From: Oscillibacter sp. 1-3
GTDB lineage: Bacteria; Bacillota; Clostridia; Oscillospirales; Oscillospiraceae
Length of the DNA stretch: 64,000 nt
NCBI RefSeq assembly: GCF_000403435.2
Contig: NZ_KE159708.1
Span: 186,001-250,000, forward strand
Direction of reading: 5' to 3'
The notes under the pieces were generated by a model. The model saw only the letters and a program-made list of their open reading frames with translations, did not search any database and had not been told where the DNA came from. Positions 10,076-37,245 of this stretch are shown in pieces (within the stretch, counting starts at the first letter, position 1; each line of letters starts with the position of its first letter). A program made the translations under genes and the position numbers.

Positions 10076-10079
10076 TGTC

Positions 10080-20316: not shown

Positions 20317-20487
20317 CCGCTATTACACTGACAGAGGGAATTTTGGAAGCCGCTGCCGAAATTCCCTCTGTCATGTTTTTTGAAATAGGGCTGTCATGCC
20401 ATTAGCCCGGTTTTTTCAAATTTGCCCATAACCATAGCAGAAGGGCGCGGTGACCGCCCGATTTTTACAGATTGGAGGTATGCGGAA

Positions 20488-22188: not shown

Positions 22189-22455
22189 TTGCGGAATACA
22201 AAATCAAATTCATCGAAAAGTGAGAGAAAAACTTTGAAATCCAATATAAGAAACGAAATCAAGGCGTACATCGTGCGTCAAGGGATGACCATGCAGGAAG
22301 TGGTGGATGTGCTGTCCGATGTGTACGGCTGGTCGGACAGTGTGTCCAATCTCTCCAACAAGCTCCAGAGGGAATCCCTCCGCTACAAGGAGGCTGTCCA
22401 GCTTGCCGATGCGCTGGGCTATGACATTCAGTGGGTCCGGCGGAAGGATGCTTGA
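22189..22455 (+). CDS. Small HTH-like protein of element A
   Basis: Up to 88 residues, with the helical segment IKAYIVRQGMTMQEVVDVLSD and a C-terminal QLADALGYDIQWVRRKD. This is the pattern of a small DNA-binding protein of the kind regularly found just upstream of large serine recombinases. The exact start is uncertain: the TTG at 22189 has no clear ribosome site and a shorter form starting near 22234 is possible. It may regulate excision. Confidence 0.6.
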   Translation: MRNTKSNSSKSERKTLKSNIRNEIKAYIVRQGMTMQEVVDVLSDVYGWSDSVSNLSNKLQRESLRYKEAVQLADALGYDIQWVRRKDA

Positions 22456-22493
22456 CCCGAAATCGAAAATCTACGAATTATGGAGGTACTTGA

Positions 22494-22742
22494 TTGAACA
22501 ATTTTGAGAGTTATGTGTACGAACCTATTGACCTGTGCGCCTGCTATGAGCCGATGTTCGACGCGCCTGCTGACTTTGTTGAGGAGTGGTACAGGGAGCA
22601 TGGACTGAGAAATCCTTTCTCCTGCAAGGTGACACGCAAAATTGGAAACACCTGGTATATCATCGAGACGGAGTGCGATGGAGATGAGCCGCTCCCCAGC
22701 ATGATGTGCCGCCTGATTTTTTCGGATAAGGGGGCGGTTTGA
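22494..22742 (+). CDS. Small conserved protein upstream of serine recombinase
   Basis: 82 residues, not recognised by family. The TTG start is preceded by GGAGGTACTTGA. It is acidic and rich in Cys and Trp (YEPIDLCACYEP, RKIGNTWYIIETECDGDE). Its stop overlaps a possible ATG of the recombinase frame (TGATG), so it is probably co-expressed and may be a recombination directionality or control factor. That role is inferred from position only. Confidence 0.6.
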   Translation: MNNFESYVYEPIDLCACYEPMFDAPADFVEEWYREHGLRNPFSCKVTRKIGNTWYIIETECDGDEPLPSMMCRLIFSDKGAV

Positions 22743-22828
22743 TGTCGACAAAGCAGTTGGATCATGCTACAATGGAGCCATGCACTACGGTACTGTCAGC
22801 TGACCCACACAAGAAAGGAGACAACAAC

Positions 22829-24469
22829 GTGGATCAGCAGAAAATCACGATTTTGTACTGCCGTTTGAGCAACGAGGATTTGGTGGATGGGGAGTCAAAC
22901 TCGATTGCGAATCAGAGAAGCATCCTCAGCAGCTACGCCGCTTCCCACGGTTTCACGAATACCAGGGTGCTGGTAGATGACGGGTACACCGGGACGAACT
23001 TCAATCGCCCCGGTGTCCAGGAGGGACTTGCCTTGGTGGAGCAGGGCTTGGTTGGCACCTGGATTGTTAAGGACATGAGCAGATTTGGCAGAGACTATTT
23101 GCAGGTCGGTCGATTTACGGAAATCGTCTTTCCGAGCTATGATGTGCGGTTCATCGCCGTCAACGATGCGGTGGACAGTGCCAAAGGGGACAACGATTTT
23201 ACCGTAATTCGCAATGTTTTTAACGATTTTTATGCCAAAGATACCAGTAAAAAGGTCCGCGCCGTTATGAACGCCAAGGGGACCAGTGGCAAGCACTTAG
23301 GCGGTCCGCCCTACGGCTACCGCGCCGACCCGCAGGACAAAAATCACTGGATATTGGACGAGGATGCTGCCCCAATAGTCAAACGTATTTTTGACCTGAC
23401 CATTGCTGGAGTAGGCCCGTCCCGGATTGCCCGTATCTTGGAGGCAGACAAGGTGTTGACGGTCAAGGCCCTCTATGCCCAGCAGAAGGGAAAGCCCCTG
23501 CCGGAGCGCCCCTGCCACTGGATTGAGCAGTCCGTGGTCAACATCCTGGAACGGATGGAGTACACCGGCTGCACCTGTAATTTCAAAACTTACTCTAAGT
23601 CCTACAAGCTCAAGAAGCGCATTCCCAACGCCCTGGAGGATATGTTCATCCTGCCGGATACCCAGGAGGCCATTGTGCCGAAAGAACAGTGGGACAGAGT
23701 GCAGGAGCTTCGCAAGCACAAGCGCCGCATGACCAAGGCGGAGCGGCAGGGACTGTTCTCCGGTTTGGTGGTCTGCGCCGACTGCGGGAACAAGCTCCAC
23801 TTCGCCACTTGTAAGAACTTTGAGGGTAGACAGGATCACTACGTCTGTGCCAAGTACAAAAGCGGGCGGGGAACCTGTTCGGCGCACTATATCCGGGAGG
23901 ACGTTCTGCGGGATGTGGTTCTGGAGCGCATCCGGGCTGTGACGGATTATATCCGGTCCGATGTGGAGGGCTTTCAGGAGGACTGGCTGATGTGCCGGAG
24001 AGAGGAACAGGAGAAATCCATCCGGGAGGACAAACGGCGGCTGGAAAAAGCGAAGAAGCGTCTGGCGGACATCGACAAACTCATCACCCGTATCTATGAG
24101 GACATGGTACTCGGCAGTCTGAGCCAAGAGCGTTATCAGAAGATGCTGGAGGGCTATGAGGCGGAGCAGGCCAGTCTGAATAACGAGATCATCGGTCTGG
24201 ACGATTGGGTGGCGACCCGTGAGGAAATGGAGGACAATGTTGACCAGTTCCTCGCCCTGCTTGAGAAGTATGTGGACATCCCTGATCTGACCCAAACCAT
24301 TGTGAATGAGTTCATCAAGCAGATCATCGTCTACGCCCCGGAGAAGGTCAACGGCAAGCGGACACAGAAGGTCAAAATCGTTTTCAACTTCTTGGAAGAA
24401 GTTGAAGTACCGGAAATCAGCGAACCTGTTATTACAAAAACCACCTATGGACGCAGAAAGACGGCGTGA
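22829..24469 (+). CDS. Large serine recombinase
   Basis: About 546 residues: an N-terminal resolvase domain with the nucleophile in YCRLSNED, plus VKDMSRFGRDYLQVG, then the recombinase domain (GGPPYGYRADP), a zinc ribbon (CADCGNKL ... CAKYKSGRGTC) and a coiled coil near residues 390-470. It integrates and excises element A by site-specific strand exchange. The start was placed at the GTG behind AAAGGAG; a 29-residue longer form beginning at the ATG at 22742, overlapping the previous stop, is possible. It belongs to the TnpX/transposon-type large serine recombinases. Confidence 0.92.
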   Translation: MDQQKITILYCRLSNEDLVDGESNSIANQRSILSSYAASHGFTNTRVLVDDGYTGTNFNRPGVQEGLALVEQGLVGTWIVKDMSRFGRDYLQVGRFTEIVFPSYDVRFIAVNDAVDSAKGDNDFTVIRNVFNDFYAKDTSKKVRAVMNAKGTSGKHLGGPPYGYRADPQDKNHWILDEDAAPIVKRIFDLTIAGVGPSRIARILEADKVLTVKALYAQQKGKPLPERPCHWIEQSVVNILERMEYTGCTCNFKTYSKSYKLKKRIPNALEDMFILPDTQEAIVPKEQWDRVQELRKHKRRMTKAERQGLFSGLVVCADCGNKLHFATCKNFEGRQDHYVCAKYKSGRGTCSAHYIREDVLRDVVLERIRAVTDYIRSDVEGFQEDWLMCRREEQEKSIREDKRRLEKAKKRLADIDKLITRIYEDMVLGSLSQERYQKMLEGYEAEQASLNNEIIGLDDWVATREEMEDNVDQFLALLEKYVDIPDLTQTIVNEFIKQIIVYAPEKVNGKRTQKVKIVFNFLEEVEVPEISEPVITKTTYGRRKTA

Positions 24470-24484
24470 CACACGGTCACGCCG
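24462..24484 (+). terminator. Hairpin at recombinase stop
   Basis: CGGCGTGAC and GTCACGCCG form a perfect 9-bp stem with a 5-base loop. The stop codon lies inside the left arm. Confidence 0.6.
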
Positions 24485-24842
24485 CCCTCTGCGGCAAATA
24501 GTTACTTGTCACTATTAAGCCTTACAAAATCGCGATTTTTTGCTGGAGCTATCAAAATTTGGCGGAGAGTGGGTTCTATCCGCTCTGCTAAAATTTTTTG
24601 CCGAAATTCATCATATAATACAAAATTTATCCGACCGAAAAAGACGTTCTGCGGCATTATAACGGCGATGCCGAAAGAGGGCCCCAGACGCCGAAGAAAC
24701 GGTCCGACAGGCTGGAGAGAATCGCCCCCCCTTCCAGGCGCCGCGGGAACGCTCCAAAAGGCGAAAAGGAGCCCCGTCAGGGCTCCTTTCGCGGCGGTCA
24801 GCCCTTTCAGAGGAAAAGGCGTCCTATGTTGAAATCCAGGTC
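24470..24842. other. Right end of element A and chromosomal spacer
   Basis: Sequence up to about 24650 is AT-rich and should contain the element end; after that GC-rich chromosomal sequence resumes and holds the HxlR gene terminator. No gene is visible. Confidence 0.45.
24775..24799 (-). terminator. Terminator of the HxlR-type gene
   Basis: AAAGGAGCCC and GGGCTCCTTT pair around CGTCA. On the minus strand the stem is followed by a T-rich tract. Confidence 0.8.
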
Positions 24843-25508: not shown

Positions 25509-28500
25509 TCAGTCTTCGTTACAGCTTTTTTCCAGCCGGACATAGGTTTTATACCGCTCGTCGGCCTCCCGCTGCGCTTGCGCAAAAAGTTTTTCGGCGA
25601 TTTCTGGATACTTGATCTTCAATCCCGCATAGCGAACCTCGCCGTTGAGGAACTCGCTGACCGGGACGGAGGGCTGCTTGTAATCCAGGGAGAAGGGCTT
25701 CGCCTTGTCCGGATTATAGCGGTATAGCGGCCAAAGACCGCAGTCCACCGCTTTTTTCATCTCCGCCTGAACGCTGGCCATACCGGCCTTGATGCCGTGG
25801 TTGATGCAAGGAGCGTAGGCAATGACGATGGAGGGGCCTTTGTGCTCCACCGCCTCCGTGACGGCCTTCATCAGCTGGCCGGGATTGGCGCCCATTGCCA
25901 CAGAGGCCACATACACGTTGGGATAGGTCATCATCAGACGGCCCAGATCCTTCTTGGCTGTGCGCTTGCCGCCGTCGGCGAATTTGGCGGAGGCGCCCAC
26001 CGGCGTCGCCTTTGAGGACTGTCCGCCGGTATTGGAGTACACCTCCGTGTCCACCACGAACACATTCACATCCTCGCCGGAGGCCATTACATGATCCAGT
26101 CCGCCGTAGCCGATGTCATAGGCCCAGCCGTCGCCGCCAAAGAGCCATACCACTTTTTTGCCCAACTGGTCCCTGTGAAGAAGAATATCGTCCGCCAGCG
26201 TCCTGGCCTCGCCGGTGAGCTCCGCCGCCTCCAAAGCGTCCGTCAGGATACGGGCGTCCCGGTCGTTGGCATCCAGATCGTCGAAGGATTCCAGCCACGC
26301 ATGGATGGCCGTTTCCACCTCCGTGCCGGGGACCAGCGGCAGCAGGGCCTCCGCGCGGAGGCGCACACAGCCCCGGCGCTGCTTCACGGCCAGCGCCATG
26401 CCCAGGCCGTTTTCCGCCTGATCCTCAAAGAGCGTGCCGTAGAAGGCGGGGCCCCGCCCCTCCTGATTCTTGGTATAAGGCAGAGAGGGAAACGCGCCGG
26501 CCCAGGCCAGAGAGCAGCCTACGCCGTTAACCCAGTAGGTCTTCTCGCCGTAAAGCTGGGTGAGGAGCTTGGCATAGGGCGTTTCACCACAGCCGGCGCA
26601 GGCGCCGGAGAACTCCACCAGCGGCTGGCTGAACTGGCTGCCCTTGAGGGTTTTCCGGTCGAACACGCCGGGCTTGCCGCTGATGGTCAGGGCGTAGTTC
26701 CAGTTTGTCTCGTCGTACATGGAGTCGTCCGCCGGCTTCATGGTCAGGGCCTTGTCCTTGGCCGGGCAGGAGGCCGCGCAGCTTCCGCAGCCGGTGCAGT
26801 CCAGCGTGCTGACCTGCAGGCGGTACTTCAAACCCGCCGCGCCCCTGGCCTCCGCCATCGTGAAGCCGGCGGGGGCGGCCTGGGCCTCCTCCTCGTTCAC
26901 CAGATACGCCCGGATGGCGGCATGGGGACAGACAAAGGCGCACTGGTTGCATTGCAGGCACTTGGCGGGGTCCCAGTCCGGCAGGCTGGCGGCAATGCCC
27001 CGCTTGTCATACTTGGATGTGCCCAGAGGATAGGTGCCGTCCTGGTGGTTCAAAAAGGCGGAAACCGGCAGATCGTCGCCCCGCTGGCGGTTGCAGGGCA
27101 GCACGATGTTCTTCACCACGTCGGGCAGACGCTCGTCCACGGTCCGCTCGTCCGGGGCGCTGGCCCAGGCGGCGGGCACGCTGACTTTTACAGGGCTGTT
27201 GACGCCTGCGTCCACAGCCGCCATGTTCATGCCAACCACCTTTTCGCCCTTCTTGGCGTAGGTCTTCTGTACGGCCTCCTTCATGCGGCGCACGGCGTCC
27301 TCCACCGGCATCACGCCGGAGAGCTTGAAAAACGCAGCCTGAAGGATCATATTGGCATGGTTTCCCAGCCCCAGCTCCCGGGCCAGTTTGTTGGCGTCCA
27401 CGATATAGAACTGCACATGGTGATCCGCGATGTACTTCTTTACGTCGCCGGGCAGCTTGCTGTCCAGCTCCGCCTCGCTCCAGGAGGTGTTCAGAAGGAA
27501 GGTGCCGCCGTCCTTGATCTCGTGGATCATGTCGTAACGGGTAATGTAGGACTGGGCGTGACAGGCCAGAAAATCCGCGGCCTTGATAAGGTAGGTGGAG
27601 CGAATGGGATCTTTGCTGAAGCGGAGGTGGCTTTTGGTGATGCCGTAGGACTTCTTGGAGTCGTACTCAAAATACGCCTGGGTGTACATTCCGGCGTGGT
27701 CGCCGATGATTTTGGCGGAATTTTTGTTGGCGCCCACAGTGCCGTCGGAGCCCAGGCCCCAGAACTTGCAGGAAACGGTGTCGGCGGATTCGGTGATAAG
27801 GGGCTCCTTCACGTCCAGGGACAGGCGGGTTACATCGTCCACTACGCCGATGGTGAAAAGATGCCTGGGCTCCGCGGCATCCATGTTGTCGTAAACCGCC
27901 TTGAGCTGAGCGGGCGTCACATCCTTGGAGGCCAGGCCGTACCGGCCGCCGTAGATGGCGGGGGCGTTCTTGTTGTTGGCATAGGCGGCGCACACATCCA
28001 GATATACCGCGCCGGCAATGGCTCCCGCCTCCCTGGAACGGTCCATGGCGGTCACTTTCTTCACCGTTTTGGGCATGGCATTGAGAAAATACTTCATGTC
28101 AAAGGGACGGAAGAGGTGAATTTGCAGCAGGCCTACCTTTTCGCCCCTGGCCCGCAGATAATCCACCACCTCTTTGGCGGCCTCACAGGCGGAGCCCATC
28201 ATCACAACGACCCGCTCCGCGTCCTCCGCGCCGTAGTAATTGAAAATATGGTAGTCCCGTCCCGTGATTCGATTAATGCCCTGCATATATCCCTCCACCA
28301 TGGCCGGGATCGCGTCATAGGCCCCGTTGTTGGCCTCCAGGGACTGATAGTAGACGTCGGGGCCCTGCACGGTGGTGCGCTGAACAGGATGCTCCGGATT
28401 CATGGCGATGCGGTGGTAGGCCTCCAGCGCCTCCCTGTCCAACAGTTCGGCCGCGGCGTCCAGATCGATAACCTCAATTTTCTGGATCTCATGGGACGTG

Positions 28501-29030
28501 CGGAAGCCGTCGAAAAAATGGATGAAGGGAACCCGGCTTTTGACCGTGGTCAGGTGGGCTACCGCGGCCAGATCCATCACCTCCTGAACGCTGGCGGTGG
28601 ACATCATAGTCACGCCGGTGGTGCGGCAGCTCATCACGTCCTGATGATCGCCAAAGATATTATTGGCGTGCTGGGCCACAGAGCGGGCCGCCACATGGAA
28701 CACGGCGGGCATCCGGTGGCCGGCCATAATGTACAAATTTGGAATCATCAGCAGAAGTCCCTGGGAGGAGGTAAAGGTCGTGGCCATGGCCCCGGCCTCC
28801 GCGGCGCCGTGAAGTGCGCCGGCGGCGCCGCCCTCGGACTGCATCTCCACCAGCGTCACAGGCTGGCCAAACATATTCTTCCGTCCGGAGGACGCCCACT
28901 CGTCCACCTTCTCGCTCATGGGCGAGGAGGGGGTGATGGGGAAGATGCCTGCAACATCGGTAAAGTGGTAGGCAACGTGCGCGCAGGCCTCATTGCCGTC
29001 CATCGTTCGCATGATTTTTTTCTCTGCCAT
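25509..29030 (-). CDS. nifJ: Pyruvate:ferredoxin (flavodoxin) oxidoreductase
   Basis: A 1173-residue single-chain enzyme that converts pyruvate and CoA to acetyl-CoA, CO2 and reduced ferredoxin. Domains in order: pyrimidine-binding (FPITPSSPMSEKVDEWA), domain II, the gamma-type region, a 2x[4Fe-4S] insert (CLQCNQCAFVCP near residue 691; CTGCGSCAASCPAKDKAL near 741) and the thiamine-diphosphate domain (GGDGWAYDIGYGGLDHV near 963) with a further Cys cluster near FSGACAGCGETPYAKL. The start is the ATG behind GGAGATTTCT. It is the last gene of the IclR-controlled run, 77 bases behind the M24 gene. It may be the general enzyme or one that handles a 2-oxo acid made by that pathway. Confidence 0.96.
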   Translation of the reverse strand: MAEKKIMRTMDGNEACAHVAYHFTDVAGIFPITPSSPMSEKVDEWASSGRKNMFGQPVTLVEMQSEGGAAGALHGAAEAGAMATTFTSSQGLLLMIPNLYIMAGHRMPAVFHVAARSVAQHANNIFGDHQDVMSCRTTGVTMMSTASVQEVMDLAAVAHLTTVKSRVPFIHFFDGFRTSHEIQKIEVIDLDAAAELLDREALEAYHRIAMNPEHPVQRTTVQGPDVYYQSLEANNGAYDAIPAMVEGYMQGINRITGRDYHIFNYYGAEDAERVVVMMGSACEAAKEVVDYLRARGEKVGLLQIHLFRPFDMKYFLNAMPKTVKKVTAMDRSREAGAIAGAVYLDVCAAYANNKNAPAIYGGRYGLASKDVTPAQLKAVYDNMDAAEPRHLFTIGVVDDVTRLSLDVKEPLITESADTVSCKFWGLGSDGTVGANKNSAKIIGDHAGMYTQAYFEYDSKKSYGITKSHLRFSKDPIRSTYLIKAADFLACHAQSYITRYDMIHEIKDGGTFLLNTSWSEAELDSKLPGDVKKYIADHHVQFYIVDANKLARELGLGNHANMILQAAFFKLSGVMPVEDAVRRMKEAVQKTYAKKGEKVVGMNMAAVDAGVNSPVKVSVPAAWASAPDERTVDERLPDVVKNIVLPCNRQRGDDLPVSAFLNHQDGTYPLGTSKYDKRGIAASLPDWDPAKCLQCNQCAFVCPHAAIRAYLVNEEEAQAAPAGFTMAEARGAAGLKYRLQVSTLDCTGCGSCAASCPAKDKALTMKPADDSMYDETNWNYALTISGKPGVFDRKTLKGSQFSQPLVEFSGACAGCGETPYAKLLTQLYGEKTYWVNGVGCSLAWAGAFPSLPYTKNQEGRGPAFYGTLFEDQAENGLGMALAVKQRRGCVRLRAEALLPLVPGTEVETAIHAWLESFDDLDANDRDARILTDALEAAELTGEARTLADDILLHRDQLGKKVVWLFGGDGWAYDIGYGGLDHVMASGEDVNVFVVDTEVYSNTGGQSSKATPVGASAKFADGGKRTAKKDLGRLMMTYPNVYVASVAMGANPGQLMKAVTEAVEHKGPSIVIAYAPCINHGIKAGMASVQAEMKKAVDCGLWPLYRYNPDKAKPFSLDYKQPSVPVSEFLNGEVRYAGLKIKYPEIAEKLFAQAQREADERYKTYVRLEKSCNED

Positions 29031-29107
29031 AGAAATCTCCATTCTGCCTCCGGCTCAGCGCGGCGGCAATGTAATAACGTTTTCAGCCATCCTGCCGGAA
29101 ATCCCCT

Positions 29108-30217
29108 TTATTTGCAGACGGGCCCGGCGGGAAAATCCGTTAAAAACTCCACGCCGTCCCGCCTCAGCAGGATGGTATCTGTAATTCTCGGTCCGCCGAC
29201 GCCGGGAATATAAATGGTGGGAAGCAGCAGATCCACCACCATATTCTCCCGCAGGACTGCGGCGCTGCCCTTGGCAATGATGGGATAGAACTCGGACTGC
29301 CGGATTCCCACGCCATAGCCGATGTGCTCCATGACCCAATTTTGACCAAAGCCCTGCTCAGTCACATAGGCGGCGGCCGCGTCATAGAGCTCTCCGCAGG
29401 TCACGCCGGGCCGCAGCGCCTCCACGGCAATCCGCTGGGCCCCCTTGAGGACCTCGTAAATCCGCAGACTCTCCGGCTTCGGCGTTCCCAGGAAGACCGT
29501 GCGGCACATTTTTGCCGTATATCCGTCGCAGGACGCCCCCAGATGGATGACCACCGGAGCGTTGTCCTCAATGGGCGTCCGGCTGGCATAGGGATGCAGG
29601 TTCAGCTGGCGGCTGTGGGTCAGCACCTGCATCCGGAAGGAGGAGCCCATGGAGCCGGCCTTGGCCATGGCGTATTCCGCCTCCGCCAGCACCTCTGTCT
29701 CCAGCATTCCGGGCTGCACGCAGCCAATGGCGGCCCGCATGCCGGCGGCCAGCGCCTTTCCGGCGTTCCGCATCCGCTCAATCTCCTCCGGGGCTTTGAC
29801 GCTTCGGATCTCATAGCAGGGAATGGCGATGTCGCAAACCTGCATATCCGGCGCGGCGTCCCGGAGACACTGATAGTCCTTCAAGCTGATAAAATAGCGG
29901 GTGAAGCCCAGCTTCGGCGCCCTCCAGTTCCGCGCCTTCAGCCACGCCCCCATCATCGTGCTCTGATTGTGGGAGGGGAACCGATAGGGCGTTACCTTTT
30001 CGATGCCGCCGGCCTTTCGGACATGGCCCGCCTCCATCCACAGGCAGAACAGCTCTGGCTCGCCCTCGGCAGGCACCGCCAGTCCGCCTCCTTCCAAATC
30101 GTCAACGCCGGTGAAATAGATCAGGTTCTCCCGGTCATAGATCATGGCCGCGTCTATCCCCATCTCCCGCAGTTTCTCCTGCAGGGCCGCAATGCGCCCG
30201 GGCACCAGGTTCTTCAT
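29108..30217 (-). CDS. M24-family (Xaa-Pro peptidase/creatinase fold) protein with degenerate metal site
   Basis: A 369-residue protein with a creatinase N-terminal domain (residues 1-130) and an M24 pita-bread domain (EIERMRNAGKALAAGMRAAI onward). In metallopeptidases the first two metal ligands are aspartates around VLIDxGAxxxGYxxDxTR; here the segment is VVIHLGASCDGYTAKMC, with both replaced. This points to a metal-free hydrolase of the creatinase type, not a proline peptidase. AAAGGAG precedes the ATG. It is placed between the BenE-type permease and the pyruvate oxidoreductase, so a C-N or similar bond hydrolysis in the same pathway is a reasonable inference. Confidence 0.85.
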   Translation of the reverse strand: MKNLVPGRIAALQEKLREMGIDAAMIYDRENLIYFTGVDDLEGGGLAVPAEGEPELFCLWMEAGHVRKAGGIEKVTPYRFPSHNQSTMMGAWLKARNWRAPKLGFTRYFISLKDYQCLRDAAPDMQVCDIAIPCYEIRSVKAPEEIERMRNAGKALAAGMRAAIGCVQPGMLETEVLAEAEYAMAKAGSMGSSFRMQVLTHSRQLNLHPYASRTPIEDNAPVVIHLGASCDGYTAKMCRTVFLGTPKPESLRIYEVLKGAQRIAVEALRPGVTCGELYDAAAAYVTEQGFGQNWVMEHIGYGVGIRQSEFYPIIAKGSAAVLRENMVVDLLLPTIYIPGVGGPRITDTILLRRDGVEFLTDFPAGPVCK

Positions 30218-30307
30218 GCCAGTTTCTCCTTTCCAAATGGTACATAGAGCGGCGGCACAAAACCGGCCGCCGCCCTCGTATGATGTTCAAACGGTGATAA
30301 ATCCCTC

Positions 30308-31534
30308 TCAGCCCTCCACGGCGGCCTTGAAATCCTGGGGCTCGCAGATCAGGGAGACGACTACACCAATCACCAGCGCCCAGAAAGCGCAGCCAATATT
30401 CAAAAGGGTAATGCCGGACAGACCCACGCAGAAGGCGGAAAACGAACCATAGCGGAATCTGCCGCTGGAAAAGCCGTTTTTCAGGCACAGGATCAAAACG
30501 TTCATCATAGCCAGACCGGCCAGACAGTTTGCCAGACCGGCAGGGAAGCCGGCGACAAAGGTGATGGCGTAAACGCCCACCACGCCGAACAGGGCAAAGG
30601 TAATGCCGTTGACCACAGAGGCCACATAACGGCCCTCCTTCTCACCGGCGTCGGAAGAGCAGCAGATGGCGGTCATCGGACCGGCGATGTTGGCGTTATG
30701 TGCGCCGAAGAGGCCGGAGATGATGCCGCCGATACCGGAGGAGACTGTCATGGTGTTGGCGGGGACGAGATACCCCTCGGTGCGGAGAACGCCCATGGCC
30801 TGGGCATTTTCCGCGCCCATCACCAGCGCAGCCAGAGGGATGGAGCAGGAGAGGATCAACGTGCCGTTGAAAGCGGGGGCCACAATGCGGGGCGCGATGT
30901 AGGTGATATTGCTCATATCCGCGGTAAACTGTCTGGTGACCAGCGCGACCGCGAAGCCGGCAATCAGAGCCGCCACAACCGGCGGACACTTCTTGATAAC
31001 GCGGGGCACCAGAAAGAAGGCCAGAACCGCGGCGCCGCACACCACGGGGTTGCCCTGCGTGGTGGTGACAATGCCGGAGCCGAACTTCATCATCGCGCCG
31101 CCCACCATCGCCATAACAATTTCAAGAGGCAGGAATTGCATGATCTTTCCAATAGCGCCGGACAGGCCGATAATCAGCACAATGACGCCCGCGATGATAA
31201 AAGCGCCTGCGGCCTCGTTAAAGCTGTACCCCGCCAGGGCCGTGCCCATCAGGGTCGCGCCGGGGATGGAGTATGCGCCGGAGACGGGAATCTTGTAATA
31301 CAGCGCCAGAATCGTTCCCAGCAGACCGCCGAACACATAGATGCCAAATACCCAGGTCACGGTGTCCGCCAGGGTGAAGCCGGCGGCGTTGGCGGCGGCC
31401 ACAGTCACCAGGCAGGGGCCTGTGCAGCCGAATACGGTGGAGATCAGTCCCGCGGAAATCGTGCTCCCGTTCAAATGCTTCGGCAAGTCAGCCAGACCCG
31501 ATCGAAAACCCGGACCCTTTTCAAAGATTTTCAT
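30308..31534 (-). CDS. BenE-family (benzoate-type) membrane permease
   Basis: A 408-residue hydrophobic protein with about twelve membrane spans. It matches the BenE benzoate/H+ symporter family: GLADLPKHLNGSTISAGLIS at the N terminus, VSGAYSIPGATLMGTAL, and the internal SSGIGGIISGLFGAHNANIA repeat region. The start ATG at 31534 follows AAGGAGAAAACAT. It lies in the middle of a run of putative catabolic genes and would import their aromatic or heteroaromatic acid. The ligand may differ from benzoate. Confidence 0.85.
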   Translation of the reverse strand: MKIFEKGPGFRSGLADLPKHLNGSTISAGLISTVFGCTGPCLVTVAAANAAGFTLADTVTWVFGIYVFGGLLGTILALYYKIPVSGAYSIPGATLMGTALAGYSFNEAAGAFIIAGVIVLIIGLSGAIGKIMQFLPLEIVMAMVGGAMMKFGSGIVTTTQGNPVVCGAAVLAFFLVPRVIKKCPPVVAALIAGFAVALVTRQFTADMSNITYIAPRIVAPAFNGTLILSCSIPLAALVMGAENAQAMGVLRTEGYLVPANTMTVSSGIGGIISGLFGAHNANIAGPMTAICCSSDAGEKEGRYVASVVNGITFALFGVVGVYAITFVAGFPAGLANCLAGLAMMNVLILCLKNGFSSGRFRYGSFSAFCVGLSGITLLNIGCAFWALVIGVVVSLICEPQDFKAAVEG

Positions 31535-31601
31535 ATGTTTTCTCCTTAATACTTGTTTTTGACATCTGGGGCGTTTCTTCCCCAAAAGCAGAAACACACA
31601 C

Positions 31602-33074
31602 TCAGCCCTTCAGCTTTTCCAGGAGGGAGATGTCCACGCCGCGCTGGCGGAACCACTTGGGCATCAGCTCCTCATCCACCCGCCTGCTGACAATGGGCGC
31701 CTGACGGATCAGCAGCTCCGCCAGGGATTTCGAGCAGTTCAGACCTCCCATGGCCCCGTCGAATATGATGACCTTGTCGGTGCCGGTGGTCCGATAGGCG
31801 AACTCCATGGCGGATTCCGTCGTTTTGGCCACTACGGCGTGATCCATGTACTTGATGTTCATGGGCTCCATGTCGAACATGTCCGCCTGCTCCTGGCCCA
31901 CCACCACCGTGGGCACATGTTCGGAGAAGAACGCGGAGGGATAGCCCGTCCAGGCGTAGTTGTGGACGCACATCCTGATGGCCGGATTCAGCGGCGGAAT
32001 GCTCTTTTCAAAGGGTTTTCCGTTCTTGCCGTAGAAGGCCTCCGTATACCAGGTATAGGCCGGCAGGGGCGTCCCCTCCATGTCGTACAGGTCCTGATTG
32101 GCGCCGGTGAAATTGGCGTAGATCACGCCGGCGGAGAACACATAGGGGACGGGGCAGGGGAAATCCAGGACGGCGATGCACTCGTCAATGTCGCCGAAGA
32201 GGGTCATGATCTTGCCATACAGCTGGCAGCCGATGAAGGTGGCCCGGTCGTTGATGGCGTAGAGATCGTTGTCCGCGTCCACGCCGATGACGCCGTGGGG
32301 GCCCACGTTCAGGAAAGCGCCGAAGGCAAATTTCTTCTGAACAAATTCGGACTCAAAGATGGCGCGGGCCGTGAAGTTCGCGGCCCGGGGGCCCAGATTC
32401 TGATGATACGTGGAGCGCGTCTCAATGCGGGCATAGGACATGCCGAAGGGCTTGACGGCTTTGTCGATCTGGCGGTGGAAGTGAACCTCCCGCACATCGG
32501 TGTGATGGGCGTGGATGATCCAGTCCGCGTCGTACACGGCCTTGATGCCGTAGAGGGTGCCCACCTCTGTCTCAATGGGAATGCCCTCGTCCACCGGAGC
32601 GACGCCCTTGGTCTTTCCGGGCCCGTAGTATTTGTCCAGTTCATAGCGCTTGATGTACTCCTCGGTTTCCCGGAATCGCATTCCCACGCCGGCCCGGAGG
32701 CGGATATTGTCTGTGCCGGTCTTCTCGTGCACCACGTCCCGGATCGCCTTCAGCAAAATCGCGTATGGCTGGCCGCCCAGCAGGGTGAAGCCGTGGTGGG
32801 ACGCCAGAACGTTTACGCTGTCCGTGGATTGGATCATGGACATATCCACCTTGCGCAGCTCCTCCTTCGCCACCTCATACAGCCGGTCCAGCGCGTCGTC
32901 TCCGCCGGGATAGATGACCTGCGGCAGCTCGGGGAACAGCTCTGTCAGCCGCAGAGAGCACATACCGGGCAGCTCCGCCACACGCCTCTTCACCAGCGCG
33001 GGGTCGATGCCATACTGTGAGGGCTTCGGAGCGATGGGCATAATCGGTGCGTGCATCAGATTTTTATCAGCCAT
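31602..33074 (-). CDS. LarA-like (DUF2088-type) protein, tentative
   Basis: A 490-residue protein. The segment DNIRLRAGVGMRFRETEEYI, followed by GIPIETEVGTLYGIKAVYDADWIIHAHHTDVREVHF (split near residue 190), has the layout of the DUF2088 domain of nickel-pincer lactate racemase: a nucleotide-type loop, then an AD-x-I-I strand and histidines. The canonical LarA PH-x-GFSGG signature is not seen, so the match is weak. The ATG overlaps the ferredoxin gene by eight bases, behind AAGGAGG, which implies coupled translation with the redox protein. Substrate and reaction are unknown; a racemase, epimerase or hydro-lyase-like step on a hydroxy acid is possible. Confidence 0.5.
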   Translation of the reverse strand: MADKNLMHAPIMPIAPKPSQYGIDPALVKRRVAELPGMCSLRLTELFPELPQVIYPGGDDALDRLYEVAKEELRKVDMSMIQSTDSVNVLASHHGFTLLGGQPYAILLKAIRDVVHEKTGTDNIRLRAGVGMRFRETEEYIKRYELDKYYGPGKTKGVAPVDEGIPIETEVGTLYGIKAVYDADWIIHAHHTDVREVHFHRQIDKAVKPFGMSYARIETRSTYHQNLGPRAANFTARAIFESEFVQKKFAFGAFLNVGPHGVIGVDADNDLYAINDRATFIGCQLYGKIMTLFGDIDECIAVLDFPCPVPYVFSAGVIYANFTGANQDLYDMEGTPLPAYTWYTEAFYGKNGKPFEKSIPPLNPAIRMCVHNYAWTGYPSAFFSEHVPTVVVGQEQADMFDMEPMNIKYMDHAVVAKTTESAMEFAYRTTGTDKVIIFDGAMGGLNCSKSLAELLIRQAPIVSRRVDEELMPKWFRQRGVDISLLEKLKG

Positions 33075-33696
33075 GAGTGGCGCCTCCTTCTTCATCTGTC
33101 TGAATCTCGGCGATTTTATCCAGCAGGGCGCGATCCTCGTCGAAATAAAAGCCGCGGCTGCCGTATTTCTCCTTCACTTCTTGGGGCATATCCCACGCAG
33201 TCACCGTGGTGCCATACCACTGGAAGCCGTCCGGGTTGGGATGCAGTTCGTTTCCGGCAGCCTTGACCATACGCAGCATGGGCTGAATGCACTCGATGGT
33301 GCAGCCGGTGCGCATACCTGTGCGGGCGGACACTTCCTCCGGCGTTGTGGCCCCGTCCAGCAGGCAGGCGGCCACCTCCTCCGCGCGGGTGCCCACGCAG
33401 TAGCACAAAACCTGCTCTGGATTGAAGTGCGCCTTGGCGCACAGGCTGCGGATCTCCCGCGGATCAAACTTGGAGACATCCACGCCCACATCGAAAGACT
33501 CCTCCCGCTTAACCATTGTAATTGCGTAGAAGGGGCAGCGGTCAGCGCAGTTCGCGCAGGCCATGCACTTCTCCGGGTCGGAATGCGCCTTCTTGTCTGT
33601 GACGCGGATCGCATAAACAGGACAGACCTTTTCACAGATCCTGCATCCCCGGCAGATTTCCGGGTCCACTTTGGCCATCATTGTTACACGCTTCAT
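33067..33696 (-). CDS. Ferredoxin-BFD fusion protein
   Basis: 209 residues with two [4Fe-4S] motifs (CRGCRICEKVCP near residue 14 and CMACANCADRCP near 43), then a bacterioferritin-associated-ferredoxin-like [2Fe-2S] domain (CYCVGTRAEEVAACLLDG ... TGCTIEC, near residues 95-145) and a C-terminal tail without a known domain. It is a cytoplasmic electron carrier or the small subunit of an oxidoreductase. Its gene overlaps the LarA-like gene, so the two products probably form a complex. No flavoprotein partner such as a HcnA/LhgO-type oxidase is adjacent, which is unusual for BFD fusions. Confidence 0.8.
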   Translation of the reverse strand: MKRVTMMAKVDPEICRGCRICEKVCPVYAIRVTDKKAHSDPEKCMACANCADRCPFYAITMVKREESFDVGVDVSKFDPREIRSLCAKAHFNPEQVLCYCVGTRAEEVAACLLDGATTPEEVSARTGMRTGCTIECIQPMLRMVKAAGNELHPNPDGFQWYGTTVTAWDMPQEVKEKYGSRGFYFDEDRALLDKIAEIQTDEEGGATHG

Positions 33697-33775
33697 AAAA
33701 TGTTCCTTTCCTTCCTTTCAGCTGCAAGATATTTTATATTTCAGCTGTCCCGGCGGAAAACCGGAGCCGGCTGAA

Positions 33776-34552
33776 CTATTCCACGAACTTTACCGTAACG
33801 CTGCCCATGCCCTGAAAGCTGGCCGTCACCACGTCTCCCGCTTCCACGGGAACAGCGGCAGTCAGCGCGCCGGCCATCACGACACTGCCGGCCTTCAGTT
33901 CGATGCCGAATTCCGCCAGCATATTGGCCAGACACGCCACCGCGGCGGCGGGATTTCCCCATACCTCGGCGGTAGTTCCGCTGTTGACCAGCTCCCCGTT
34001 CTTCTCCAGCGTCATGCCTGTCAGCCGCATGTCCACCTGCTCGATGGGCGTCATCCGCGCACCCATCATCAGGCGGGCGGATGAACCGTTGTCCGCCACG
34101 GTGTCCTGGAGCTTGACCTTCCAGTCCTGAATGCGGGAGTCCACAATCTCAATGGACGGCGCCACATACCGGACGGCATCGTACACGTCCGCCACGGTGA
34201 CGCCGGGGCCTTTCAGCGTCTTGCTCAGGCAGAAGGACAGCTCCCCCTCCACCTTGGGCTGGATTAGCTGGGAGATATGGCAGACCTGCCCGTCAGTCAG
34301 GAGCATCCCGTCAAACAGGTGTCCATAGTCCGGCACATCCACATTCAGCAGCTTCTGCATCCCCTGGCTGGTGAGGCCGATCTTCATGCCGATCAGCCGC
34401 TGGCCGTTTTTCAGCCTCCGCTCGACGTTCACCAGCTGAATCCGATAGGCGTCCGCCACGGTCATCTCCGGAAACCGGTCTGTCAGCCGCTGGATCTGCG
34501 TCCGGTTCTCCTCCGCTTCCCAGAGCTGGTCCGCCAATTCATGGTAATTCAT
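33776..34552 (-). CDS. 2-oxopent-4-enoate hydratase/2-oxo-acid decarboxylase family (MhpD-like)
   Basis: A 258-residue protein of the MhpD/XylK/FAH-like family: GMKIGLTSQGMQKLLNVDVPDYGHLFDG (split near residue 70), then KVEGELSFCLSKTL with the acidic metal ligands, and the C-terminal AGSVVMAGALTAAVPVEAGD. Members add water to 2-hydroxypentadienoate or decarboxylate 4-oxalocrotonate late in ring-cleavage pathways. The ATG at 34552 follows GGAGGAAACAAAG. No companion aldolase or acylating aldehyde dehydrogenase (MhpE/MhpF) lies beside it, so the canonical meta-cleavage route is incomplete here. Confidence 0.88.
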   Translation of the reverse strand: MNYHELADQLWEAEENRTQIQRLTDRFPEMTVADAYRIQLVNVERRLKNGQRLIGMKIGLTSQGMQKLLNVDVPDYGHLFDGMLLTDGQVCHISQLIQPKVEGELSFCLSKTLKGPGVTVADVYDAVRYVAPSIEIVDSRIQDWKVKLQDTVADNGSSARLMMGARMTPIEQVDMRLTGMTLEKNGELVNSGTTAEVWGNPAAAVACLANMLAEFGIELKAGSVVMAGALTAAVPVEAGDVVTASFQGMGSVTVKFVE

Positions 34553-34591
34553 CTTTGTTTCCTCCAATCAAAATGAAATCGGTGCGTTCCT

Positions 34592-35500
34592 TTACTGCCC
34601 GTGGCGGTGATGGCTTCGGCATGCGCCCTTTTGTTTCCACTTCTCCGCCAGAACCGCCGCCAGAGCATCCGCCAGACGGGCGTTGTCCCACGATTCCGCC
34701 AGTCCCCGGAGCAGTACGGGAACCGCCAGCTCCACCTCGTCGTGGGGACCCGGCAAGGCGACAAGGGTGCTCAGCCCCTCGCTTCCCACGGCGATGCGGA
34801 CACCGTCCTTCACATGGCGTCCCGTCCCCTTGGTAAACTTCACCATATAGGGGGCGGCCGCTGCCGAAGCGACGGACAAAATCCCCTCCACGGTGCAGTC
34901 CTTGTCCTCTGCTCCCACACCGCCGCTGGTAACAATCAGGCCAAAGCCCCGGTTCAGCGCGTCCGACAGGTTTTCCACCACGTCGGGCAGACGGTCCGGG
35001 ATCACTCCGCCCACCGTCACCCGGTATCCGGCCCGCTCCAGCGCGTCCCGCAGATACGGGGTATTGGTGTCCTCAATCAGTCCCTGTTCCAGTTCAAAGC
35101 CCGTGGGAAAGACGATGGCCCGGCGGGCGACATTCTCTCGGATCGTCTCCGTCATCTCCGCCACCCGTTCCAGCATGGCGGACTGGTTCTCCACTCCGGC
35201 GCAGATTTGGCCCAGAATACCGTTGGAGTGGATATAGGTCTCTGGATACAGCGTCACCCCCGGCAGAGCGCCCACCGCCTCCAAAACGGCGGCCTCCCGG
35301 CCGATGATGTTTTCCTGTGGAATATCCGCCGCCAGCACGTCCAGGGTGATATGGCGGGGCCGCACATCCACAACCAGCACCTCGCCCTCCGGCAGTCCCA
35401 GCGCGCGGGCTACCGTGTTGGCCAAGTTCGTGAGATTGGTGTGCTCCAGAGTAATTTCATTGATCCACAGCTCGGTTTTTTCCAGCAAATTCAGTCCCAT
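34592..35500 (-). CDS. MoaB/CinA-like molybdopterin-binding-domain protein
   Basis: 302 residues. The C-terminal half is a MoaB/MogA/CinA domain (IEDTNTPYLRDALERAGYRV, LIVTSGGVGAEDKDCTVEGI, LVALPGPHDEVELAVPVLL). The N-terminal 130 residues form an extra domain that I do not recognise. It starts four bases after the NadC-like stop (GGAGGAATGAGCGA then ATG), so the two are coupled. Stand-alone proteins of this kind are found with molybdenum-hydroxylase maturation genes and in CinA-type nucleotide repair. No molybdoenzyme is encoded in the window. Confidence 0.8.
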   Translation of the reverse strand: MGLNLLEKTELWINEITLEHTNLTNLANTVARALGLPEGEVLVVDVRPRHITLDVLAADIPQENIIGREAAVLEAVGALPGVTLYPETYIHSNGILGQICAGVENQSAMLERVAEMTETIRENVARRAIVFPTGFELEQGLIEDTNTPYLRDALERAGYRVTVGGVIPDRLPDVVENLSDALNRGFGLIVTSGGVGAEDKDCTVEGILSVASAAAAPYMVKFTKGTGRHVKDGVRIAVGSEGLSTLVALPGPHDEVELAVPVLLRGLAESWDNARLADALAAVLAEKWKQKGACRSHHRHGQ

Positions 35501-35504
35501 TCGC

Positions 35505-36305
35505 TCATTCCTCCCCCAGCACGTCCAGCTTCATATCCAGCAGCTTCGCGTCCACGATTTCCTTGCCGATGCACAGAATATCGATTCCCCGTCCGGCCAG
35601 CTCCGGAATGTCGGTCAGCCGCACGTTCCCTGCGAAGGCGACCTCCGCCGGCTTCCGCCTGCCGAGGCGGTCCAGCGTCGTCAGACAGCGATCCAGATCC
35701 GCCAGTTCTCCGGTATCCACCATCAGGATGGCGGCGCCGCCATCAACGGCCTGAATCGTCTCCTCCTCTATGCCGGCGGTTATCCCCCGGATCTGCACCA
35801 CCCGGGTAAAGCCCGGCAGCCTTTGGCAGGCCTCCAGCGCCGCCGGAATGGAGCCGAACATCCGGATGAAATTTTTATCCAGATAGGCCATGGGCGGCTG
35901 GCAGATCCGAAAGGCGGCGCCGCCGGAGGCGGTGGCCGTCCGCACCATGTCTTTGATTTCCGGCGGCATCTTTTTCCAGGAGCCGGAGACAATCCGCACC
36001 CTGCCGTCCGCCAGCTGCACCGCCGTTCTGGCGGCGGTGGCGATGCCGGAGAATTTCGCCAGCGTTCCGATAATCTGCTCCTCCGCCATGGCGATTTGCT
36101 TTGGGGAGGCCAAAAAGTTTCCAAACCGCTCGCCGTGGGACAGCTCCTCCCCCTCTGCCCTGCAGAGCTCCAGGGCGATCCCCAGCGCTTTGGCACGGGC
36201 TCGGGCCGCTTCGACGCCCGAGAGCACGCCGGAGCGTTCCGCCGTGAGAACTGCCCGGAATTTTTTGCTTTCCATCCCCTGGAACAAAAGGTCTCGAACA
36301 TCCAT
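35505..36305 (-). CDS. NadC/ModD-like phosphoribosyltransferase-fold protein
   Basis: 266 residues with the quinolinate phosphoribosyltransferase layout: an N-terminal alpha/beta part (SGVLSGVEAARARAKALGI ... LAKFSGIATAARTAVQLA) and a barrel ending in AEVAFAGNVRLTDIPELAGRGIDIL. The usual TRKTxPG and GGGxxHR substrate motifs are replaced by SGSWKKMPPE and SGGAAFRICQ, so the ligand is probably not quinolinate. ModD proteins of molybdate operons are similar outliers. The start ATG at 36305 follows GGAGGGCGGTCT. It is the first gene of the run downstream of the IclR gene. Confidence 0.78.
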   Translation of the reverse strand: MDVRDLLFQGMESKKFRAVLTAERSGVLSGVEAARARAKALGIALELCRAEGEELSHGERFGNFLASPKQIAMAEEQIIGTLAKFSGIATAARTAVQLADGRVRIVSGSWKKMPPEIKDMVRTATASGGAAFRICQPPMAYLDKNFIRMFGSIPAALEACQRLPGFTRVVQIRGITAGIEEETIQAVDGGAAILMVDTGELADLDRCLTTLDRLGRRKPAEVAFAGNVRLTDIPELAGRGIDILCIGKEIVDAKLLDMKLDVLGEE

Positions 36306-36474: not shown

Positions 36475-37245
36475 TCATCCCCGGTAGCCCAATCTGGCCG
36501 ATAAGGCTCTTGTGTGCATCAGCAGCTCCTCTTTCGCTTCCTCAATATTGATGCTGCGAATCCGGCCATAGGGAAAAGAGAGGCTGATTGCCAGCACAGG
36601 CTCGCCGTTCCGCTGGAAAATCGGCGCGGCGATACAGGATAGGCCCGGCTCGATCTCCTCCTGGTCCATGGCGATTCCCGTCTTGCGGACGTTCATCAGT
36701 TCCTCTGTCAGCTGCTGGCGGGTGGTGATGGTCTTCTCCGTCAGCTTTTTCAGGGGAAACTGGAGGTATTGATCCATATACGCCTCCGGCAGGTGGGCCA
36801 ATATCGCCTTGCCGACACCGGTGCAGTGCATGGGCACCCGCTTTCCGACGCTGGAGGCGCTGATAAGGGACGATCCCGCGTCCAGCTTGTCAACGTAGAT
36901 AACCTCGCCCTCGCTGTGCGCGGCAATATGTACGGTAGCCGGATATTTTTGCACCAGAGGTGCGCACAGCTCCTTGGCCTCATTCCGGATGTCGATGCGG
37001 GAGAGCACCAGGTTCCCCATCTCAAACAGCTCGATCCCAAGCCGGTACTTCCGGTTGCCCGGAATCTGTTCCAGGTATCCGTATCCGGTCAGCGTATTGA
37101 CAAGGCCGAAGACCGTGCTCTTGTTCAGGTTCATCTCCTCAGCAATCTCGGATATGCCCATCTCCGGCGTATAGCGGAAACACCGGAGAATCTCCACCGC
37201 CCTGGCTACGGACTGTACCTGTACACCGCTTTTTTTCCGTTCCAT
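36475..37245 (-). CDS. IclR-family transcriptional regulator
   Basis: A 256-residue protein with an N-terminal winged helix (MGISEIAEEMNLNKSTVFGL, near residues 29-48) and a GAF-like effector domain (VGKRVPMHCTGVGKAILAHL ... GIAMDQEEIEPGLSCIAAPI, split near residue 185). IclR proteins sense small aromatic or central metabolites and control adjacent catabolic genes. The ATG at 37245 is preceded by AAGGGGGC. It lies immediately upstream of and in line with the eight-gene run, so it is its probable regulator. Confidence 0.92.
   Translation of the reverse strand: MERKKSGVQVQSVARAVEILRCFRYTPEMGISEIAEEMNLNKSTVFGLVNTLTGYGYLEQIPGNRKYRLGIELFEMGNLVLSRIDIRNEAKELCAPLVQKYPATVHIAAHSEGEVIYVDKLDAGSSLISASSVGKRVPMHCTGVGKAILAHLPEAYMDQYLQFPLKKLTEKTITTRQQLTEELMNVRKTGIAMDQEEIEPGLSCIAAPIFQRNGEPVLAISLSFPYGRIRSINIEEAKEELLMHTRALSARLGYRG

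What the first reader, a model, noticed from the sequence alone, without database searches (positions are those of the whole stretch)
25509..36305. Eight-gene IclR-linked run that may encode an unknown aromatic or heterocyclic acid pathway
All eight genes run in one direction with gaps of -8 to 90 bases: NadC-like, MoaB/CinA-like, MhpD-like, ferredoxin-BFD, LarA-like, BenE-like permease, creatinase-like M24 protein, pyruvate:ferredoxin oxidoreductase. Import by BenE, a ring-cleavage-type hydratase and a final 2-oxo-acid oxidoreductase suggest breakdown to pyruvate. The canonical aldolase and the ring-activating enzymes are missing, and three members (NadC-like, M24, LarA-like) have altered active-site motifs. 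I know of no pathway with this set.
Basis: partly seen in the sequence, partly recalled or inferred. Interest (0 to 1): 0.75.

Follow-up and report, generated by a model that had tools for sequence, protein, structure and literature searches.

The report
Possible nickel-cofactor furan-degradation gene cluster
A bacterium related to gut anaerobes carries a recurrent, apparently undescribed gene cluster that may open the furan ring of furoic acid without oxygen, using a very divergent relative of the nickel enzyme lactate racemase coupled to a ferredoxin; if so, that nickel cofactor would be doing a new kind of reaction.

Summary
The eight-gene run is real. Its LarA-like gene (my label: LarX) has 64 homologous loci across Firmicutes, Deltaproteobacteria and others, mostly beside the same partner families. 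LarX hits no Pfam family convincingly in 60 members, yet its AlphaFold model (pLDDT 92) matches LarA-type nickel-pincer enzymes (Z 17-20; next 6.8). LarB/C/E lie in 16 of 64 loci, and 45 of 50 LarX genomes carry LarC. In 23 of 34 MhpD-bearing relatives' loci the run also holds the 4-hydroxy-2-oxovalerate aldolase and/or its dehydrogenase; here a PFOR stands instead. A second same-strand run in this window, 13 kb away, encodes an HmfF-type furandicarboxylate decarboxylase, UbiX, aldehyde and alcohol dehydrogenases and a TRAP transporter; HmfF genes adjoin LarX elsewhere too. Best reading: 2-furoate -> (LarX + ferredoxin-BFD, reductive ring opening) 2-hydroxypenta-2,4-dienoate -> 4-hydroxy-2-oxovalerate -> 3-hydroxybutyryl-CoA + CO2 (here) or pyruvate + acetyl-CoA (elsewhere). 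Gene content, fold and neighbourhood are shown; cofactor, substrate and reaction are inferred. Against: this genome gave no LarB or LarC hit; LarX and LarA share no detectable sequence similarity; LarX-LarC association within the class is not significant. I found no description in the open-access papers searched.

The parts
36475..37245 (-). IclR-family regulator
   Evidence: PF01614, PF09339; IclR-like genes within 10 kb of LarX in 27 of 64 loci
35505..36305 (-). NadC-like (QPRTase-fold) protein; proposed cofactor tailoring
   Evidence: PF01729/PF02749; TIGR00078 96 bits against cut-off 198; invariant K113 K114 R135 K146 D199 in 37 aligned; fused to the MoaB-like domain in L018
34592..35500 (-). 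MoaB/CinA-like protein; proposed cofactor tailoring
   Evidence: PF00994; AlphaFold model pLDDT 86, pTM 0.65, Foldseek hits CinA, MogA, MoeA/gephyrin
33776..34552 (-). MhpD-like; proposed 2-hydroxypenta-2,4-dienoate hydratase
   Evidence: TIGR03220 297 bits, below cut-off 409; closest PDB chain is the decarboxylase NahK, 221 bits, against 186 for a hydratase, so hydratase or decarboxylase is not settled by sequence
33067..33696 (-). ferredoxin-BFD protein; proposed electron donor to LarX
   Evidence: Fer4 and BFD-like domains; family present in 59 of 64 LarX loci, at or within 300 bases of the LarX start in 53 of 59 testable loci; in L040 it is one ORF with a pyridine nucleotide-disulphide oxidoreductase
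31602..33074 (-). LarX (LarA-fold protein); proposed nickel-pincer reductive ring-opening enzyme
   Evidence: no convincing Pfam hit in 60 members; model pLDDT 92.1; LarA-type structures on top; K208-x15-H224 in 60 of 60
30308..31534 (-). BenE-family permease; proposed furoate uptake
   Evidence: PF03594, 246 bits
29108..30217 (-). M24-fold protein without the usual metal ligands; role unknown
   Evidence: PF00557; motif table
25509..29030 (-). PFOR; proposed 4-hydroxy-2-oxovalerate oxidative decarboxylase
   Evidence: TIGR02176 1676 bits; present in 6 relatives' loci that lack MhpE/F
3577..4926 (-). HmfF-type UbiD (furandicarboxylate decarboxylase)
   Evidence: 574 bits to PtHmfF 6h6v, next family 208; found, 65% identical to the UbiD of L014
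2870..3496 (-). UbiX flavin prenyltransferase
   Evidence: TIGR00421, over cut-off
5007..6041 (-). zinc-type alcohol dehydrogenase family protein (no equivalog cut-off reached)
6116..9077 (-). TRAP transporter DctM, DctQ, DctP
   Evidence: TIGR00786 and TIGR00787 over cut-off; small subunit by a weaker hit
9119..10886 (-). two transketolase-like subunits; role unclear
10914..12398 (-). aldehyde dehydrogenase family protein (no equivalog cut-off reached)
12500..24500 (.). foreign-looking DNA between the two runs, with a serine recombinase
   Evidence: GC 0.38-0.54 in the three stretches measured against 0.60 in both runs; PF00239/PF07508

Best explanation
The run is the lower half of an oxygen-independent furan-acid pathway. 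Upper half (HmfF run, 2870-12398): a furanic alcohol or aldehyde is oxidised to 2,5-furandicarboxylate or 2-furoate, and HmfF with UbiX removes one carboxylate. Lower half: LarX, a LarA-fold protein holding a nickel-pincer nucleotide (perhaps tailored by the NadC-like and MoaB-like proteins), takes electrons from ferredoxin-BFD and reductively cleaves the C5-O bond of 2-furoate: C5H4O3 + 2H gives 2-hydroxypenta-2,4-dienoate (C5H6O3), the MhpD substrate. MhpD hydrates it to 4-hydroxy-2-oxovalerate. In relatives MhpE/MhpF give pyruvate, acetaldehyde and acetyl-CoA; here PFOR would give 3-hydroxybutyryl-CoA + CO2 and return two electrons, so furoate + H2O + CoA -> 3-hydroxybutyryl-CoA + CO2 balances. 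Shown: gene content, LarA fold of the model, genomic linkage to larBCE, nickel transport and HmfF-type genes. Inferred: NPN binding, substrate, ring-opening reaction, PFOR substrate, and the roles of the NadC-like, MoaB-like and M24 proteins.
For: LarA fold: the nine Foldseek matches with E <= 0.001 are all LarA, malate racemase or LarA-like entries; VIA-align Z 17.4-20.5 for twelve entries (eleven so named, plus 4nar, an unnamed Thermotoga protein), next 6.8. K208-x15-H224 in 60 of 60 LarX and H198-x9-K208 (H198 in 44 of 60) repeat the spacing of the LarA H-x9-K-x15-H motif seen in 18 of 20 classical LarA ORFs (roles of these residues from passages of PMC7583248 and PMC11770544). LarB, LarC or LarE in 16 of 64 loci; LarC in 45 of 50 LarX genomes, nine of which show no classical LarA; a CbiM-like gene beside larC in L006 and NicO beside LarX in L036. 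Redox partner. Substrate: HmfF-type gene in this window; UbiD beside LarX in L014 and L047 nearest to HmfF; HmfF at 44% identity or more in 10 of 50 LarX genomes; HmfF at 45% or more in 2 of 393 class genomes, both among the 8 LarX carriers (Fisher p 0.0004, with a cut-off chosen after seeing the hits). Lower pathway: DmpG_comm/HMGL and AcetDehyd-dimer domains.
Against: No biochemistry. HMM-HMM comparison finds no LarX-LarA similarity and the GGxK part of the LarA motif is missing. This genome gave no LarC or LarB (no positive control) hit; five of 50 LarX genomes gave no LarC. Within the class, LarC is in 6 of 8 LarX carriers against 176 of 385 others, p 0.15. 40 of 50 LarX genomes have no HmfF at 44% or more, so the furan link rests on a minority. 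The MhpD-like protein is closest in the PDB to a 4-oxalocrotonate decarboxylase. All LarA-family reactions in the papers seen are racemisations or epimerisations. The transketolase pair in the HmfF run and the M24 protein are unexplained.
Confidence: 0.5

Rival explanations
1. Same machinery, another five-membered heterocycle: pyrrole-2-carboxylate or thiophene-2-carboxylate. Reductive opening of pyrrole-2-carboxylate would give 2-aminopentadienoate, which would hydrolyse to 2-oxopent-4-enoate and ammonia and feed the same MhpD step.
For: Only some LarX genomes carry an HmfF-type gene (10 of 50); the chemistry balances equally well (arithmetic); L060 carries three LarX copies, which suggests several substrates.
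Against: The linked UbiD proteins examined (window, L014, L047) are nearest to furandicarboxylate decarboxylase; for L014 and L047 the pyrrole-2-carboxylate decarboxylase PA0254 (4ip2) scores only 97-100 bits against 574-581.
Confidence: 0.13
2. LarX opens 2,5-furandicarboxylate directly to 2-hydroxymuconate, and the MhpD-like protein is a 4-oxalocrotonate decarboxylase.
For: Closest PDB chain of the MhpD-like protein is NahK, 221 bits, against 186 for a hydratase.
Against: NCBIfam ranks hydratase first (297 against 272 bits); MhpE/F in relatives need a hydratase and no other candidate was recognised in those runs; HmfF would be superfluous.
Confidence: 0.1
3. LarX is an ordinary racemase or epimerase of a hydroxy acid in a pathway whose ring opening is done by other genes.
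For: All characterised LarA homologues in the papers seen do this.
Against: A ferredoxin-BFD gene accompanies LarX in 59 of 64 loci and in L040 is one ORF with a flavin oxidoreductase domain; no other ring-attacking enzyme was recognised in the run.
Confidence: 0.15
4. Benzoate, catechol or nicotinate-type breakdown, as the gene names suggest.
For: BenE and NadC family names; MhpDEF is the lower catechol meta-cleavage route (recalled).
Against: The window UbiD is far from AroY (161 against 574 bits); the NadC-like gene accompanies LarX also in loci without a seen MhpD (L050, L054-L057, some on short contigs), which suits a cofactor role better.
Confidence: 0.08

Closest known systems
LarA lactate racemase superfamily (nickel-pincer nucleotide enzymes; cofactor made by LarB, LarC, LarE)
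   Same: Fold of the model; K-x15-H spacing; linkage to larBCE and nickel transport
   Different: No sequence-profile similarity; no GGxK; constant ferredoxin-BFD, NadC-like and MoaB-like partners; proposed net reduction instead of racemisation
Aerobic furfural/HMF pathway of Cupriavidus basilensis HMF14 (hmfABCDE, hmfFGH)
   Same: HmfF/HmfG-type decarboxylation of furandicarboxylate to 2-furoate
   Different: Known route goes through furoyl-CoA hydroxylation to 2-oxoglutarate (PMC6604932 passages); here a reductive opening to 2-hydroxypenta-2,4-dienoate is proposed
Catechol meta-cleavage lower pathway (MhpD/MhpE/MhpF, DmpEFG)
   Same: MhpD-like here; DmpG_comm aldolase and AcetDehyd-dimer dehydrogenase in relatives
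   Different: No ring-cleavage dioxygenase in the run; aldolase and dehydrogenase replaced by PFOR in this run

Membership tests
LarA superfamily (PF09861 Lar_N) | Lar_N profile match | tested here: not met
   PF09861 is not among the matches of any of 60 members; hhalign probability 0.1 against a LarA profile. So LarX is not filed as a Lar_N member
LarA superfamily (PF09861 Lar_N) | LarA fold | tested here: met
   Foldseek and VIA-align on a model of pLDDT 92
LarA superfamily (PF09861 Lar_N) | cofactor-tethering lysine and nickel-binding histidine | tested here: inconclusive
   K208-x15-H224 invariant in 60 of 60 with LarA-like spacing; no residue-level superposition could be made
LarA superfamily (PF09861 Lar_N) | NPN cofactor and 2-hydroxy acid racemisation | not testable with these tools
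   needs purified protein
LarA superfamily (PF09861 Lar_N) | LarB/LarC/LarE available in the genome | tested here: inconclusive
   LarC in 45 of 50 LarX genomes; no hit for LarC or LarB in this genome, which nevertheless has three classical Lar_N hits over the cut-off
HmfF furandicarboxylate decarboxylase (window 3577-4926) | closest characterised relative is HmfF | tested here: met
   574 bits to PtHmfF, next 208; activity not tested
2-oxopent-4-enoate hydratase (TIGR03220) | reaches the curated cut-off | tested here: not met
   297.5 bits against 408.8; best of the related models, but none is reached
NadC (TIGR00078) | reaches the curated cut-off | tested here: not met
   96 bits against 198
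M24 metallopeptidase | the usual metal ligands (recalled) | tested here: not met
   replaced in P0007 and in 19 of 20 aligned M24 proteins from other loci
Pyruvate:ferredoxin oxidoreductase (TIGR02176) | reaches the curated cut-off | tested here: met
   1676 bits against 911; substrate not tested

The most novel reading that the evidence does not exclude
LarX with ferredoxin-BFD founds a class of nickel-pincer-nucleotide oxidoreductases that dearomatise heteroaromatic acids without oxygen or ATP, perhaps with a nucleotide-extended cofactor built by the NadC-like and MoaB-like proteins; this genome, with no LarB or LarC hit, would import the cofactor or assemble it differently. Closed by PFOR, it gives a redox-neutral fermentation of furoate to 3-hydroxybutyryl-CoA.
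Probability: 0.35. Interest if true: 0.93.

Novelty: new variant of a known kind. Interest (0 to 1): 0.8.

Why it matters
Furfural and hydroxymethylfurfural inhibit fermentation of biomass hydrolysates. A 2018 review (PMC6604932, passages) calls the oxygen requirement of the known degradation route its obvious limitation, cites two anaerobes reported to degrade furanic aldehyde, and expects other pathways to be found. This cluster gives candidate genes in named species, among them Oscillibacter ruminantium, Dethiosulfatibacter aminovorans, Moorella thermoacetica and Geosporobacter ferrireducens, in which one can be tested. For cofactor chemistry, the nickel-pincer nucleotide is described in the papers seen only in racemases and epimerases; a ferredoxin-coupled member would extend it to net redox chemistry and give the NadC-like and MoaB-like proteins a testable role.

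Tried and rejected
Sequence routes from LarX to LarA failed: Pfam, NCBIfam, PDB phmmer and profile, and hhalign against 20 LarA ORFs. Two of those 20 (L078, L081) lack the motif and were probably the wrong ORF; the LarX profile is also shallow (Neff 2.6).

Weak or failed tests: LarX x LarC within the class is not significant (6 of 8 against 176 of 385, p 0.15). The contrast of 45 of 50 with 176 of 385 (p 7e-10) compares different taxonomic sets, is not corrected for kinship, and at least three genomes appear in both sets (same contig coordinates). The LarB search of this genome had no positive control and the MhpF search rang in none of 14 control genomes, so absence there is not shown; the aldolase and LarE were not searched in this genome. 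Several LarX genomes are MAGs, so 'no classical LarA' and 'no LarC' may be gaps.

PFOR against MhpE/F: the script counted 7 PFOR loci among 34 MhpD loci (5 neither, 6 PFOR only, 22 MhpE/F only, 1 both; p 0.002). The one with both, L048, rests on a 40-bit hit that I discount. Of the other six, four are titled Oscillibacter, Oscillospiraceae or Ruminococcaceae, L012 is unnamed and L037 is Tissierellia, so they are not six independent cases. L011 and L047 of the 'neither' group end at contig ends. An alternative oxoacid oxidoreductase in L021 and L025 was looked for by eye and not seen.

No direct repeats clearly bounding the 12.5-24.5 kb region were seen (20 of 28 families shown), so an insertion that split one locus is a suggestion only. 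LarX was not found in plasmid records. Labels such as aldehyde and alcohol dehydrogenase, MFS and TRAP genes in L036, L038 and L040, and 'AOR-like' in L040, are my reading of translations, not family-tested; those in L047 and the window are.

Papers: searches listed no account of this cluster or of an oxygen-independent furoate route; the library is open-access PMC only and the lists are capped. Seen: passages of PMC8988006, PMC6644310, PMC7583248 (and its section 5), PMC11770544 and PMC6604932; part 1 of 5 of PMC12611868; all others as search listings only.

The gene-map script dropped ORFs under 80 aa and overlapping ORFs, which lowers some counts (ferredoxin-BFD 54 of 64 against 59 of 64).
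Full report
What is there. The eight genes are present at 25509-36305 on the minus strand with gaps of -8 to 90 bases and an IclR gene upstream. Seven have recognisable families. The eighth, 31602-33074 (my label: LarX, 490 aa), has no Pfam relative, no convincing NCBIfam or PDB sequence relative, and none of 60 aligned members has a convincing Pfam hit (best E 0.027, scattered families).

It is a recurrent system. One scan of a collection with one genome per species gave 64 LarX loci, in Oscillibacter and other Clostridia, Moorella, Desulfosporosinus, Aneurinibacillus, Alicyclobacillus, Breznakiella and many Deltaproteobacteria. The ferredoxin-BFD family is in 59 of 64 loci and starts or ends at, or within 300 bases of, LarX in 53 of 59 testable loci. 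On the LarX strand within 10 kb: MoaB-like 47, NadC-like 42, MhpD 34, BenE 27, IclR 27, MhpE 26, MhpF 24, M24 20 of 64 (counts lowered by contig ends and overlap filtering). NadC-like and MoaB-like are fused in L018. Distribution is patchy: 2 of 60 genomes among the own genome and relatives, own included, and 8 of 393 in the class, own included.

LarX is a LarA-fold protein. The AlphaFold model from 60 sequences has pLDDT 92.1 and pTM 0.91. Foldseek's nine matches with E up to 0.001 are all LarA, malate racemase or LarA-like entries. VIA-align gives Z 17.4-20.5 for twelve entries, eleven of them so named and one an unnamed Thermotoga protein (4nar), and 6.8 for the next. K208-x15-H224 is present in 60 of 60 and H198-x9-K208 repeats LarA spacing with H198 in 44 of 60 (Y 12, D 4); H188 is invariant and H94 is H in 55 of 60. 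In LarA the corresponding motif binds and uses the cofactor (PMC7583248 and PMC11770544 passages); the correspondence is by spacing only. The GGxK part is absent and HMM-HMM comparison sees nothing. So LarX works on a LarA scaffold at best; it is not a Lar_N family member.

It is linked to the nickel-pincer cofactor. LarB, LarC or LarE lies in 16 of 64 loci (families checked on one representative each, LarE only by PP-loop families and my reading). In L006 (Oscillibacter ruminantium) larC-larB-larE run divergently from the LarX run, with a CbiM-like gene beyond larC. A NicO nickel transporter lies beside the LarX run in L036. LarC is in 45 of 50 LarX genomes; classical Lar_N proteins are in 39 of 50, and nine of the eleven without them have LarC, where LarX would be the only recognised NPN client. 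Against this, the present genome gave no LarB or LarC hit, though it has three Lar_N hits over the cut-off; Breznakiella homolactica (L016, complete genome) likewise has Lar_N hits without LarC. So missing makers are not peculiar to LarX, and import, assembly gaps or another route are open. In the class sample the association of LarX with LarC is not significant (6 of 8 against 176 of 385, p 0.15).

The pathway below. A representative MhpE-like protein carries HMGL and DmpG communication domains and a representative MhpF-like protein the acetaldehyde dehydrogenase dimerisation domain: the classical end of 2-hydroxypenta-2,4-dienoate breakdown (recalled). In this window, and in six MhpD-bearing loci of relatives (L006, L008, L009, L010, L012, L037), a PFOR is present and MhpE/F are not. 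PFOR acting on 4-hydroxy-2-oxovalerate would give 3-hydroxybutyryl-CoA, CO2 and two ferredoxin electrons, the number LarX would need (inference). The MhpD-like protein is best matched by a hydratase model in NCBIfam but by a 4-oxalocrotonate decarboxylase in the PDB; I take it as a hydratase because MhpE/F need one.

The substrate. UbiD proteins beside LarX in L014 and L047 match 6h6v/6h6x at 562-581 bits and the next family at 194-206. PMC8988006 passages name 6H6V as PtHmfF and HmfF as acting on furan dicarboxylic acid; PMC6644310 passages describe its product, 2-furoic acid. A search with the L014 UbiD found an orthologue in this very window (3577-4926, 65% identical), itself nearest to HmfF (574 against 208 bits). 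It stands in a nine-gene same-strand run with UbiX, a zinc alcohol dehydrogenase-family gene, a TRAP transporter, two transketolase-like subunits and an aldehyde dehydrogenase-family gene. Both runs have GC 0.60; the stretches measured between them have 0.38-0.54 and include a serine recombinase. HmfF at 45% identity or more occurs in 2 of 393 class genomes, both LarX carriers (17 of 393 pass the looser E-value cut); in G224 HmfF and LarX are about 0.7 kb apart. In 10 of 50 LarX genomes HmfF reaches 44% identity; by coordinates eight of these lie within about 11 kb of LarX or, in L069, of a LarX fragment (L014, L022, L036, L038, L047, L048, L051, L069). The cut-offs of 44 and 45% were set after seeing the hits. 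2-Furoate plus two hydrogens has the formula of 2-hydroxypenta-2,4-dienoate, so reductive cleavage of one C-O bond links HmfF's product to MhpD's substrate (arithmetic, no call). Aldehyde and alcohol dehydrogenases also lie between UbiX and UbiD in L047.

Other members. The ferredoxin-BFD is one ORF with a pyridine nucleotide-disulphide oxidoreductase in L040, which supports an electron-carrying role. The M24 protein lacks the usual metal ligands, as do 19 of 20 aligned from other loci; I have no confident role for it. The NadC-like family keeps K113, K114, R135, K146 and D199; the MoaB-like family keeps GGVGAE-x-K-D and a CinA/MogA/MoeA-type fold. Their families normally handle pyridine nucleotides or nucleotide-charged cofactors (recalled), and both occur with LarX in loci where no MhpD is seen (L050, L054-L057), so I assign them to the cofactor (inference).

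Verdict. Observation confirmed; interpretation partly right. Best reading: oxygen-independent furan-acid catabolism with a nickel-pincer, ferredoxin-coupled ring-opening enzyme, confidence 0.5 for the whole chain; about 0.95 for the LarA fold, 0.75 for NPN dependence, 0.6 for furan acids as substrate. I found no description in searches of an open-access library; work printed elsewhere is not excluded. If the reading is right, the ring-opening step is a new reaction class for this cofactor; I file the system conservatively as a new variant because its scaffold and lower pathway are known kinds.

Noticed in passing
window 69-2302: Open reading frame joining an acyl-CoA dehydrogenase C-terminal part, an ETF-alpha FAD domain and rubredoxin, followed by a flavodiiron-type protein; possibly an oxygen-removal pair.
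   Followed up: no
window 9119-10886: Two transketolase-like subunits inside the HmfF run, with no obvious part in furan oxidation.
   Followed up: no
window 12683-16466: Low-GC pair, a DUF2357 protein and a larger protein that looks to me like an AAA-type (McrB-like) ATPase though no Pfam family was hit; possibly a restriction-type defence pair.
   Followed up: no
L060 1578-15325: Three LarX genes (one cut by the contig end) with ferredoxin-BFD genes and a UbiD gene on one contig; suggests diversification to several substrates.
   Followed up: no
L006, L010, L011, L014, L017, L037, L041, L066: A DUF3842 protein recurs in 8 of 64 LarX loci, in L006, L010, L011 and L014 beside larBCE; candidate extra NPN-related gene.
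   Followed up: no
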